Made by a program: the position numbers and the translations under genes. A stretch of DNA of 21,342 nt, taken from IMG/VR virus record IMGVR_UViG_3300002492_000003, positions 1-21,342 of that record; one strand, written 5' to 3'. Shown in pieces: positions 1-5,237 of this stretch. Below the pieces are notes generated by a model, which did no database searches, was not told the origin of the DNA, and saw nothing but the letters and a program-made list of their open reading frames with translations. The stretch's first letter is position 1. Every line of letters begins with the position of its first letter. Source of the stretch: a virus.

Positions 1-2
1 TC

Positions 3-191
3 AACGTGCTGGAGTTTCTATACGCAGTAGGTCAATTAGGCGATGTTAGGGTTGAATGCATCGTTGACGTGACACCAGGCCAGATACAAGACGGCCTTGA
101 CTGGGTGCGGAAATACAACGGTGGGAGCGTGGAAGTCATTCCCCTGGAATCAGACACCATGTATTCGGATTATGTATTGGCTGCGATATAG
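3..191 (+). CDS. Partial protein of unknown function, paralogue 1 of the TIGR-linked gene pair (5' end off the window)
   Basis: About 62 residues are visible and the frame is open to the left edge. The GTG at position 6 is not a convincing start: it aligns with an internal valine of the related gene at 546, where R-V-I-E-A-L-Y matches N-V-L-E-F-L-Y here. The pair then share V-E-C-(I/V)-V-D and a later hydrophobic strand (SVEVIPL against DEVIIVPS). The N-terminus is therefore outside the window. The protein is much shorter at its C-terminus than paralogue 2, stopping at TAG 189-191, 11 bp before the first array repeat. I do not recognise the family. The alternating hydrophobic strands suggest a small alpha/beta fold, which is inference. 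Its position directly upstream of array 1, as paralogue 2 sits directly upstream of array 2, suggests a repeated gene-plus-array cassette. Confidence 0.7.
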   Translation, partial: NVLEFLYAVGQLGDVRVECIVDVTPGQIQDGLDWVRKYNGGSVEVIPLESDTMYSDYVLAAI

Positions 192-197
192 CTACAG
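182..197 (+). repeat. Direct repeat bracketing array 1, left copy
   Basis: TGCGATATAGCTACAG here matches TGCGATATAGCGACAG at 511-526 in 15 of 16 bases. The left copy contains the stop codon of paralogue 1, and the right copy includes the degenerate last repeat of array 1. The pair may mark the ends of the gene-plus-array duplication. Confidence 0.6.
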
Positions 198-202
198 GTT
201 TG

Positions 203-519
203 GTGAAACCTAGGGTGGGATGTGCGAGCCACAACCTCGGTGAAACCCAGCAAGGTAGTGCGAGCCAGGTGGTTGGTGAAACCCATATAGGTGGTGCGAG
301 CCATTAGCAGAGTGAAATCCAGGTCGAGTGTGCGAGCCAGGTAGTATGTGAAACCCAGATTGCTTGTGCGAGCCATGTTGCCCGTGAAATCCAGGCAACG
401 GATGCGAGCCACACCCTCGGTGAAACCCAACCCGATTGTGCGAGCCATCTGTATCGTGAAACCCAGGTTGGATGTGCGAGCCGAGGCAAAAGTGTAAACC
501 GGTTGCCCTATGCGATATA
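203..519 (+). repeat. TIGR-like array 1: 18 alternating half-repeats, 36-bp period
   Basis: Type A half-repeats (GTGAAACCCA) begin at 203, 240, 276, 312, 348, 384, 420, 456 and 492. Type B half-repeats (GTGCGAGCCA) begin at 222, 258, 294, 330, 366, 402, 438, 474 and 510. The 17 intervening spacers are 8 bp long, except the first (213-221, 9 bp). Examples are gcaaggta (250-257), ggtggttg (268-275), tataggtg (286-293) and ttagcaga (304-311). The spacers differ from one another, though 232-239 and 412-419 match at 7 of 8 bases. The last two half-repeats are degenerate (GTGTAAACCG and ATGCGATATA). One A-spacer-B-spacer unit is exactly 36 bp, the reported length of processed tigRNAs. The array is probably transcribed on the + strand with its neighbours, although no dedicated promoter is visible and strand is inferred. 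It also fills most of the gene-free stretch 192-545. Confidence 0.85.
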
Positions 520-526
520 GCGACAG
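511..526 (+). repeat. Direct repeat bracketing array 1, right copy
   Basis: This is the partner of the repeat at 182-197 (15 of 16 bases identical). It overlaps the degenerate terminal half-repeat of array 1 and lies just before the ribosome-binding site of the next gene. Confidence 0.6.
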
Positions 527-545
527 AGAAATCAGGAGGTAAATG

Positions 546-1130
546 ATGGCACGATGGATTATCAGTGGCAGTCCAATAAGAGTTATTGAGGCACTGTACT
601 ATCTGGGATTATTGCACGGCACTGTCGTGGAGTGTGTTGTGGATGCAGAGAACGACGAAATAAGGGAATTGCAACGTAAATTGGGAGATGAGGTCATCAT
701 TGTGCCGTCACCTACTCTACCAGGCGCTACAGAACAGAAAGGAGGTGATGATAGCGTATGGGAACAATACCTGGAGCAATATGAGGTTGATGATGAAAAA
801 CGTTTCAGGAAATTGATACAGGCGCAGAGGGAATTGATACCGTTTCTACAGGAAATGCGTCGAGAGATTGCCAGGCATTTTGGCCCGCATAAACCGGTTC
901 GATTGGAGCTGGATGAGAGCATTGATATCTATCAGGATGTTCTCGTCTATGTTGATACGCCGAGCATTGATGCGCTGGAGGAATTCGAACGTGCTTGGCT
1001 GTATGAGGCGCTAGATCGTTATCGGCTGCCATTCTGGGTGACACTGATGCCGTTGGGGTGGGCAAGCCGATCTTGTGATGAAACCCGTAAACGTAGTGCG
1101 AGCCATACGCAGAGTGAAACCCGTCTGTAA
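546..1130 (+). CDS. Protein of unknown function, paralogue 2 of the TIGR-linked gene pair
   Basis: The product is 194 aa from the second ATG. I chose 546 over the ATG at 543 because AGGAGGT (534-540) is then 5 bases upstream rather than 2. The first 55 residues form hydrophobic strands (WIISGSP, VVECVVD, DEVIIVPSP) similar to the partial gene at 3-191. A charged, probably helical middle follows (about residues 75-110, rich in E, R and Q), then a C-terminal part with LVYVDTPSID and PFWVTLMPLG. From about residue 173 the frame runs into array 2: the first half-repeats and spacers are translated as a polar tail, and the stop at 1128-1130 lies inside a spacer. That tail is probably not ancestral. 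I do not recognise the family. Its place between two arrays and upstream of tas suggests a role in the same system, such as array RNA processing, spacer acquisition or an effector partner. None of these is shown by the sequence. Confidence 0.8.
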   Translation: MARWIISGSPIRVIEALYYLGLLHGTVVECVVDAENDEIRELQRKLGDEVIIVPSPTLPGATEQKGGDDSVWEQYLEQYEVDDEKRFRKLIQAQRELIPFLQEMRREIARHFGPHKPVRLELDESIDIYQDVLVYVDTPSIDALEEFERAWLYEALDRYRLPFWVTLMPLGWASRSCDETRKRSASHTQSETRL

Positions 1131-1467
1131 TGTGCGAGCCAGGTAGAACGTGAAACCCAATCGGCTGGTGCGTGAGCCAAGGCTGACGTGAACTCCAGTG
1201 GCGTCGTGCGAGCCAGCGTTCGCTTGTATCCCGCGAGGCAAATGCGAGCCAGTGTAGGGGTGAAATCCGTAAATGCAGTGCGAGCCGAATGATACGTGTA
1301 ATCCTAGGGAGGGATGCGAGCCAAAAATTAAGTGAAACCCAGTCAGCGAGTGCGATCCACGTCCAGCGTGAAACCCATACATCTGGTGCGAGCCAGTCGT
1401 TCGGTGAAACCCAACTTGCTTGTGCGAGCCATTTTGGCGATGAAACCTAAAGGGGTTGTGCGAATTA
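1060..1467 (+). repeat. TIGR-like array 2: 23 alternating half-repeats, 36-bp period
   Basis: Type A half-repeats begin at 1078, 1114, 1150, 1188, 1224, 1260, 1296, 1332, 1368, 1404 and 1440. Type B half-repeats begin at 1060, 1096, 1132, 1168, 1206, 1242, 1278, 1314, 1350, 1386, 1422 and 1458. All 22 spacers are 8 bp. The phase survives in degenerate copies: GGGCAAGCCG at 1060, TTGTATCCCG at 1224 and GTGCGAATTA at 1458. The half-repeat at 1168 carries a 2-bp insertion (GTGCGTGAGCCA), which shifts all later positions by 2. Spacers include ggtagaac (1142-1149), atcggctg (1160-1167), aatgatac (1288-1295), gtcgttcg (1396-1403) and acttgctt (1414-1421). The left end overlaps the 3' end of paralogue 2. 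The right end lies 27 bp before the tas start codon. It fills the gene-free stretch 1131-1494. Confidence 0.85.
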
Positions 1468-1494
1468 CACGAGATATAAACAGGAGAGGTAAAG

Positions 1495-2289
1495 ATGGAA
1501 CAAGCGGAAATCACAATTAACGGAAATGGCAATGATAATCAGTTGCCTCAGCTCAAACCCCGCAAATATCCCGAGCTGTATCAGGCATATCGGTTCTGGT
1601 ACGAGCTGGTCGAGATGCGCAAGCGCCACCTGCTGCGCATCAGCGCCGTCGAGCGCGGGGTATGTTCTCTCAGCGTGGAATTCGAACGCAAAGTCATGGA
1701 CAGAATCAAACTGGATGATGCAGTCGAGTACACGCGCCAGGAGATGATCCGCGCTGCTGAGGCTGTCCCTATATGGGAATGGATTGCCAGTTTCAAGGGT
1801 CTGGGTGCGGGAGGTTTGGCCGCTCAGTTGATCGCTCAGATAGACGACACTGGCAATTTCCCGACAATCTCATCGCTATGGCGATTTGCGGGTTATGCAG
1901 TGATTGACGGACGGCGGGAATACCGCAAATCCGGAGAGAAGGCACATTATAGTGCACATCTCAAATCCACCTGTTATTTGATCTCCGAACAATTTCTGCG
2001 TGCGCAGACAAAGCCATGGATAGACGTCTATTACGAGTACAAGGGGCGCAAACGCCGGGAATATCCCGAACCCTGGTGTGATCAGTGCAATCTGCCTGCA
2101 TCAGTGTGCGGTATCCGCAGCCATCGGAAGCGCTTTACCGACAATCACCTGCATCTGATGGCCATGCGCAAGATGACCAAGGTATTTCTGAGCAATCTGT
2201 GGCTGAGCTGGCGCACTGCTGAGGGATTGCCGGTATCAGAGCCGTATGTTCAGGCGGTTTTAGGGCACACGGATATGGTATTGGTATGA
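1495..2289 (+). CDS. Putative Tas protein (Nop/IS110-C-terminal-like, no nuclease domain) of a TIGR-Tas system
   Basis: The product is 264 aa, starting at an ATG with AGGAGAGG (1482-1489) 5 bases upstream. Residues 25-95 look helical. Residues 97-134 (FKGLGAGGLAAQLIAQID, then FPTISSLWRFAGY) match the helix-hairpin-helix core of the Transposase_20 domain of IS110-family proteins. That domain is structurally related to Nop domains of box C/D snoRNPs and to Tas proteins. A basic segment (RREYRKSGEKAHYSAHLKS, about 140-158) follows, then a possible zinc site (C195, C198, C205, H210) and a long C-terminal helix after NHLHLMAMRK. The N-terminal DEDD/RuvC domain needed by an IS110 transposase is missing, and no HNH motif is visible. 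It is therefore predicted to be an RNA-guided DNA-binding protein using 36-nt guides from the adjacent arrays. Alternatives are a degenerate IS110 transposase fragment or an unrelated helix-hairpin-helix protein. The adjacent arrays argue strongly for Tas. Confidence 0.78.
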   Translation: MEQAEITINGNGNDNQLPQLKPRKYPELYQAYRFWYELVEMRKRHLLRISAVERGVCSLSVEFERKVMDRIKLDDAVEYTRQEMIRAAEAVPIWEWIASFKGLGAGGLAAQLIAQIDDTGNFPTISSLWRFAGYAVIDGRREYRKSGEKAHYSAHLKSTCYLISEQFLRAQTKPWIDVYYEYKGRKRREYPEPWCDQCNLPASVCGIRSHRKRFTDNHLHLMAMRKMTKVFLSNLWLSWRTAEGLPVSEPYVQAVLGHTDMVLV

Positions 2290-4958: not shown

Positions 4959-5237
4959 GTGACACGCAGCGAGGTGGCATCCATCCGAGAAGATTTAGCG
5001 CGCATCGAGGCACAAATCGCAGAGCTGCGTGCATTGGTTGAGAGTGAGGCACAACGCTGCCCATATCGTGAGACCATCGCACAGTCGCGTGAGAATCATC
5101 AGCAGCTATCACGATTACAGGTTGATCTGCACACACTGCGCCTTGAGATAGCACGAGCGGGCGCGACGGGCGGAGGGGTTGTTGCTGCGGTTGTTGCTGC
5201 GGCGATCGGTATCGGTAAATCGCTGGGGTGGTGGTAA
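4959..5237 (+). CDS. XhlA-like coiled-coil membrane protein
   Basis: The product is 92 aa from GTG 4959, 10 bp after the previous gene, with GAGG (4948-4951) upstream. Residues about 3-72 are a long amphipathic coiled coil (SIREDLARIEAQIAELRAL and similar heptads). A glycine- and alanine-rich C-terminal hydrophobic helix follows (GGGVVAAVVAAAIGIG, about 73-89). This is the layout of XhlA/haemolysin-type phage proteins, which act with a holin at the membrane. It could equally be a general membrane-anchored spacer protein. Confidence 0.65.
   Translation: MTRSEVASIREDLARIEAQIAELRALVESEAQRCPYRETIAQSRENHQQLSRLQVDLHTLRLEIARAGATGGGVVAAVVAAAIGIGKSLGWW

What the first reader, a model, noticed from the sequence alone, without database searches (positions are those of the whole stretch)
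203..519. Array 1: strictly periodic alternation of two different 10-bp repeats with 8-bp variable spacers
Eighteen half-repeats keep an 18-bp step from 240 to 510 and alternate A, B, A, B without exception. The repeats are conserved while the spacers vary, the opposite of a simple tandem repeat. One repeat type alone would look like a mini-CRISPR, but two alternating types with 8-bp spacers do not fit CRISPR.
Basis: seen in the sequence. Interest (0 to 1): 0.85.

Follow-up and report, generated by a model that had tools for sequence, protein, structure and literature searches.

The report
Phage TIGR-TasA RNA-guide arrays
A bacterial virus carries two arrays of paired short RNA guides next to a nuclease-free guide-binding protein, a new member of the recently described TIGR-Tas family, and comparison of related viruses shows that such guides are swapped out much faster than the DNA around them.

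Summary
In detail: two different short repeats alternate in strict order every 18 bp, and a second array (1065-1463) and a guide-binding gene (1495-2289) belong with it. The locus is a dual-repeat TIGR array with a nuclease-free Tas protein (TasA), a kind published in 2025 (PMC12045711). It meets nearly every sequence-level feature I could test: UG...CCA boxes in both repeats, 36-bp unit, truncated edge repeats at both ends of both arrays, and a Tas protein above the curated NCBIfam cut-off (148.5 vs 100 bits). The model's best PDB folds are TasR and TasH. No guide hits its own phage genome, or a pool of related phages, above permuted pairs. A sibling phage holds type IV CRISPR genes in the same interval. 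Most likely role: non-cleaving RNA-guided DNA binding against rival elements (inferred; targets unknown).

The parts
190..515 (+). TIGR array 1: 5' truncated edge AGCTA (190-194), 9 loop repeats, 8 full edge repeats, 3' truncated edge TGCGA (511-515); encodes 9 predicted tigRNAs
   Evidence: direct reading and periodic alignment; counts against shuffles
1065..1463 (+). TIGR array 2: 5' truncated edge AGCCG (1065-1069), 11 loop repeats (some degenerate), 3' truncated edge TGCGA (1459-1463); 11 predicted tigRNAs
1495..2289 (+). tasA: 264-aa Nop-domain Tas protein without a RuvC or HNH domain
   Evidence: NCBIfam NF052498.1 148.5 bits, cut-off 100; profile to TasR 9mty E 5e-60 over TasR residues 113-323 and to TasH E 2e-32; AlphaFold2 model pLDDT 84, best PDB folds TasR and TasH
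543..1130 (+). 195-aa ORF of unknown function between the two arrays; its frame runs on into the first units of array 2 (stop at 1128-1130)
   Evidence: no family match; distant paralogue of the ORF before array 1
1..191 (+). 3' part of a 72-aa ORF (start lies upstream of the window); its stop codon TAG (189-191) overlaps the 5' truncated edge of array 1
516..545 (+). ribosome-binding-site stretch (AGGAGGTAAATGATG) after the 3' truncated edge of array 1: the array fills the gap between two genes
   Evidence: no terminator-like site at either array end
1464..1497 (+). leader with AGGAGAGG before the tasA start, directly after the 3' truncated edge of array 2

Best explanation
This is a TIGR-TasA system of a tailed phage that is probably temperate (integrase present). 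The two arrays are probably transcribed together with the neighbouring genes, cut within the edge repeats into about twenty 36-nt tigRNAs (half edge, spacer A, loop, spacer B, half edge), and each is held by a TasA dimer through its UG and CCA boxes. Spacer A pairs with one strand of a double-stranded DNA target and spacer B with the other, in the order 5'-[spacer B sequence][0-2 nt][reverse complement of spacer A]-3'. Because this Tas protein has no nuclease, it most likely bends and occupies the target, blocking transcription or replication, and does not cut it. The likeliest targets are rival phages or other mobile elements of the same host, and guide units are exchanged quickly. Shown here: array anatomy, protein family and fold, lack of a nuclease domain, absence of close self-targets, rapid spacer replacement in related systems. 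Known from the published system and inferred here: processing, dimer, paired-strand targeting. Inferred only: competitor targeting and non-cleaving interference. The confidence given is for the identity and guide mechanism; for the role against rival elements it is about 0.5.
For: Anatomy as in published TIGR dual-repeat arrays, including 5' and 3' truncated edges. Curated TIGR-Tas model above cut-off; all 13 aligned TasA proteins match that model. PDB profile and fold matches to TasR and TasH. Sequence aligns to TasR only from residue 113 on, so the N-terminal nuclease is missing. Same repeats plus a tasA gene in eleven other virus contigs, none above cut-off in 400 Chloroflexota genomes. Spacers replaced while flanks are kept in sibling pairs. 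No close self-target in any of twelve TIGR phages. A sibling phage holds type IV CRISPR genes in the same interval. Target geometry follows from the published 8-nt 3' overhang and C-5 rule.
Against: No target was found: guides do not match a 1.6-2.0-Mb pool of related phages better than permuted pairs, and four exact scans of IMG/VR gave only 1-3 hits each, in contigs without detectable homologues of six proteins of this phage. The host is unknown. Published tests of TasR saw no block of phage infection in E. coli. Expression and processing of these arrays are untested. Array 2 has several degenerate repeats, so some units may be dead.
Confidence: 0.85

Rival explanations
1. TIGR-TasA used as an RNA-guided regulator of the phage's own genome or of host genes (repressor or DNA bender, for example helping integration or silencing host genes during takeover).
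For: Phage has an integrase; TasA has no nuclease; the published TasR complex bends DNA by about 180 degrees and the authors suggest integrase help.
Against: No guide matches the phage's own contig with 0 or 1 mismatches, and matches at 2-4 mismatches are as frequent as in permuted pairs. Wholesale spacer exchange in sibling pairs fits an arms race better than fixed own or host targets. Host genes could not be tested.
Confidence: 0.2
2. A box C/D snoRNA-like guide set that directs modification or binding of host RNA.
For: Shared Nop-domain ancestry and UG/CCA boxes.
Against: The box C/D Nop protein recruits fibrillarin through an N-terminal RuvC-like domain, which is missing here; TasR had no activity on RNA substrates. 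rRNA targets were not tested here.
Confidence: 0.04
3. A decaying or silent repeat array: the arrays are remnants and no longer make useful guides.
For: Array 2 holds several degenerate units (loops at 1225 and 1297 with three mismatches; one unit with extra bases near 1168).
Against: Array 1 is almost perfect, tasA is intact and scores above the curated cut-off, and both arrays keep truncated edges and gene-to-gene spacing.
Confidence: 0.05
4. A CRISPR-like array with Cas proteins.
For: Conserved repeats with variable spacers.
Against: Two alternating 9-nt repeats, 9-nt spacers; no defence-system model (PADLOC, Cas included) matches tasA or the ORF between the arrays, and no Pfam Cas family reaches its cut-off among the window proteins tested; the adjacent protein is a Tas protein.
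Confidence: 0.005

Closest known systems
TIGR-TasA, dual-repeat type (Faure et al. 2025, e.g. Flavonifractor plautii FpTIGR; PMC12045711)
   Same: Nop-only Tas protein; edge and loop repeats with UG and CCA boxes; 36-bp unit; truncated edges at array ends; array next to the tas gene in a phage
   Different: Arrays end in the ribosome-binding region of the next gene and not in a terminator; two arrays separated by an ORF of unknown function; 5' truncated edge of array 1 overlaps the upstream stop codon; targets unknown in both
TIGR-TasR and TIGR-TasH (PDB 9mty; 21kl, 9w04)
   Same: Same Nop core by sequence and fold; UG...CCA repeats in TasR arrays
   Different: No RuvC or HNH nuclease; about 16-24% identity over the Nop core
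TIGR stem-loop arrays (Faure et al. 2025, Fig. 7)
   Same: Tas protein and boxes
   Different: Here edges are conserved repeats and not palindromes; the array does not fold better than shuffles (z -0.35)
IS110 / IS621 bridge-RNA recombinases
   Same: Distant Nop-domain homology (E 0.006 by profile; Foldseek E 3e-3)
   Different: No recombinase domain found; guides come in arrays
Type IV CRISPR-Cas
   Same: Works like: RNA-guided interference without cleavage by elements that compete with other elements (published analogy); type IV genes occupy the matching interval in a sibling phage
   Different: Unrelated proteins and guide architecture

Membership tests
TIGR-Tas, dual-repeat type | Two distinct alternating 8-12-nt repeats with spacers of about 8-9 nt, unit about 36 bp | tested here: met
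TIGR-Tas, dual-repeat type | Both repeats begin UG (box D) and end CCA (box C); loop repeat A-rich | tested here: met
   edge TGCGAGCCA, loop TGAAACCCA (motif definition)
TIGR-Tas, dual-repeat type | 5' truncated edge at array start and 3' truncated edge at array end | tested here: met
   190-194 and 511-515; 1065-1069 and 1459-1463
TIGR-Tas, dual-repeat type | Adjacent Nop-domain Tas protein | tested here: met
   NF052498.1 above cut-off; TasR/TasH by profile and fold
TIGR-Tas, dual-repeat type | Rho-independent terminator after the array (described as typical, not as defining) | tested here: not met
   no terminator-like site at either array end; arrays run into the RBS of the next gene
TIGR-Tas, dual-repeat type | Processing into 36-nt tigRNAs bound by the Tas protein | not testable with these tools
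   needs RNA sequencing
TIGR-Tas, dual-repeat type | Tandem-spacer pairing to opposite strands of a DNA target | tested here: inconclusive
   geometry searched in own and related phages, no excess over permuted pairs
TasA subtype | No RuvC or HNH nuclease domain | tested here: met
   264 aa; relatives' profile aligns to TasR 113-323 only; residues 1-20 low confidence; no Pfam nuclease
CRISPR-Cas | Single repeat type and Cas proteins | tested here: not met
   two alternating repeats; no PADLOC (Cas) model on the two proteins beside the arrays, no Pfam Cas family above its cut-off
IS110 transposon | N-terminal DEDD recombinase domain | tested here: not met
   absent; only weak similarity to the shared Nop part
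TIGR stem-loop array | Palindromic, hairpin-forming edges | tested here: not met
   no folding excess; edges are conserved repeats

The most novel reading that the evidence does not exclude
TIGR-TasA is a guide-swapping weapon between phages: guide units (and even spacer A and B separately) are exchanged far faster than the flanking genome, and the module occupies a cargo slot that in a sibling phage holds type IV CRISPR genes, so two unrelated non-cleaving RNA-guided systems would be interchangeable tools for the same job.
Probability: 0.3. Interest if true: 0.7.

Novelty: new member of a known kind. Interest (0 to 1): 0.42.

Why it matters
TIGR-Tas was described in 2025, and its targets and the way its arrays change are named there as open questions. 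This locus adds a clear phage example with two arrays, and the comparison gives evidence on array dynamics: in sibling phages guides are replaced and not merely mutated, sometimes one spacer of a pair without the other. It also finds no close self-match in twelve TIGR phages and points to a shared cargo slot with type IV CRISPR, a testable hint about function.

Tried and rejected
Pairing between spacer A and spacer B of one unit (hinted by a few units such as TGTTGCCCG/GGCAACGGA): no general excess over permuted pairs. Self-targets in own phage genomes with 9-nt or 8-nt spacers: none. Cross-targets in 1.6 Mb of related phage DNA: one exact hit, equal to permuted controls. Exact scans of IMG/VR for four window guides: 1-3 hits each, in contigs without detectable homologues of six proteins of this phage. 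Guide pairs shared between different phages: none in 31,506 comparisons. Array-repeat scan of 84,980 genomes: 54 stretches, all single matches, none an array. Rfam: no match. Search for a host in 400 Chloroflexota genomes: best terminase relative 51% identical, so host not settled. TIGR-Tas in the same 400 genomes: none above cut-off; the weak hits are partial matches in longer frames, probably IS110-like.

Full report
WHERE IT LIES. The window is part of a tailed-phage genome: a 42,422-bp IMG/VR record (IMGVR_UViG_3300027515_000002) is 100% identical to it over the 10,286 bp compared. Neighbours upstream are a replication initiator-like gene and a DnaC-like helicase loader; an integrase lies further off; a ParB-like gene and the terminase large subunit lie downstream. 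The phage is therefore probably temperate. Its host is unknown; the best terminase relative among 400 Chloroflexota genomes is 51% identical, which is only a hint.

WHAT IS THERE. Both repeats of array 1 are far more frequent than in shuffled sequence and alternate without exception at 18-bp steps from 223 to 511. Read box to box, the edge repeat is TGCGAGCCA, the loop repeat TGAAACCCA, and each spacer 9 nt, giving a 36-bp unit. Array 1 runs from a 5' truncated edge (190-194) to a 3' truncated edge (511-515), nine loops in all. Array 2 runs from 1065 to 1463 with eleven loops, some degenerate. Outside that last position, spacer positions carry 0.02-0.53 bits of information and loop positions 0.89-2.0.

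THE PROTEIN. The 264-aa protein at 1495-2289 passes the curated NCBIfam model for TIGR-Tas (148.5 bits, cut-off 100). A profile of 13 relatives finds TasR (9mty, E 5e-60) and TasH (E 2e-32) in the PDB, aligned to TasR residues 113-323, which leaves out the nuclease part. The AlphaFold2 model (mean pLDDT 84) has chains of TasR and TasH as its eleven best PDB matches, followed by IS621. It is therefore a TasA.

COMPARISON WITH THE PUBLISHED SYSTEM. Faure et al. 2025 (PMC12045711) describe alternating 8-12-nt edge and loop repeats, UG and CCA boxes, 36-nt tigRNAs, truncated edges at array ends, and TasA as a Nop domain alone. The sequence-level features are met here, except that the arrays run into the ribosome-binding site of the next gene and not into a terminator. 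From the published 8-nt 3' overhang and C-5 rule I derive the target order 5'-[B][0-2 nt][rc(A)]-3'; the opposite order would give a 5' overhang.

RELATIVES. A scan of IMG/VR for the exact repeats found 17 stretches. Eleven virus contigs other than the window's own carry repeat chains, and all eleven have a tasA gene (24-54% identity). In one, a 72-kb contig, there are at least 111 distinct units, against 5-15 most often in the paper. In several arrays the 5' truncated edge overlaps the TAG stop of the upstream gene (window array 1, two arrays each in G005 and G011), and in several the 3' truncated edge runs into a ribosome-binding site. A scan of 84,980 genomes gave only single matches.

Four pairs of sibling loci from other TasA clades have aligned flanks 80-94% identical, but only 1 of 11, 1 of 8, 1 of 6 and 3 of 11 units (smaller array of each pair) have both spacers recognisable at 7 of 9 or better in the sibling: 6 of 36. 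At 88% identity about 92% of single spacers, hence about 84% of pairs, should be recognisable. Repeats are kept. One unit shares spacer A (CATTGACGG) but not spacer B. So spacers are replaced and not just drifting. Limits: few pairs, none from the window's own lineage, and partly hand-set array registers.

WITHIN ONE GIANT ARRAY SET. In the 72-kb contig, related spacer A pairs (15, expected 3.6) and related spacer B pairs (25, expected 3.7) exceed all 300 column shuffles, yet no two units share both. This suggests half-unit reassortment, but the control ignores dinucleotide composition, so it is only a lead.

TARGETS. No self-match with 0 or 1 mismatches in any of twelve TIGR phages, two of them known only as 12-kb fragments. 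No cross-match excess in a pool of 1.6-2.0 Mb. No general A-B covariation, in agreement with the paper. Four exact IMG/VR scans were uninformative.

THE SIBLING PHAGE. A close relative that includes the matching region (IMGVR_UViG_3300010289_000007; terminase 88% identical, the gene before it 47%, a further shared gene of unknown function 31%) has no TIGR locus in its 22.6-kb contig, which is incomplete. Between its replication genes and terminase lie csf1-, csf2- and csf3-like genes of type IV CRISPR, a CysH-like gene and a methyltransferase. The csf2 and csf3 scores are strong in PADLOC but below the NCBIfam cut-offs. The paper itself compares nuclease-free TasA with type IV systems. One such pair is suggestive, not proof.

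VERDICT. A real and clear new member of a known kind. Identification is nearly certain; the role against rival elements is inferred.

Noticed in passing
L009 3076-7895 (IMGVR_UViG_3300010289_000007): Sibling phage carries type IV CRISPR csf1/csf2/csf3-like genes with a CysH-like gene and a methyltransferase in the interval where the window phage has TIGR-TasA.
   Followed up: partly
L196 about 2136-2910: Sibling phage has a tract of about 770 bp of degenerate 5-mers (NNGGC repeated with a variable dinucleotide), unexplained.
   Followed up: no
L163 4354-9780 and L164 7514-9388 (IMGVR_UViG_3300036863_000086): A 72-kb virus contig holds at least 111 distinct TIGR units in many arrays, some flanked by inverted repeats; spacers A and B recur independently.
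   Followed up: partly
L196 5754-5919 and L002 about 5134-5160: Palindromic iteron-like repeats (GGACAAAATGTCC) inside the replication-initiator gene, a possible phage origin.
   Followed up: no
window 543-1130 and L002 6479-6697: The two ORFs before the arrays are distant paralogues of unknown function (32% over 53 aa); the 543 ORF reads into array 2.
   Followed up: partly
L214 (IMGVR_UViG_642979336_000005): A record whose name suggests an isolate genome holds a TIGR array of about 18 units next to a TasA (40% identity); a good candidate for finding targets in a known host.
   Followed up: no
L204 (G448, terminase 46% relative): Another terminase relative carries tasA with arrays on both sides, with AGCGAGCCA-like edge repeats and GAGAACCA-like loops.
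   Followed up: no
L013 145-230: A phage with 59% identical terminase carries the tail of an array with the same repeats about 0.7 kb upstream of the terminase gene.
   Followed up: no
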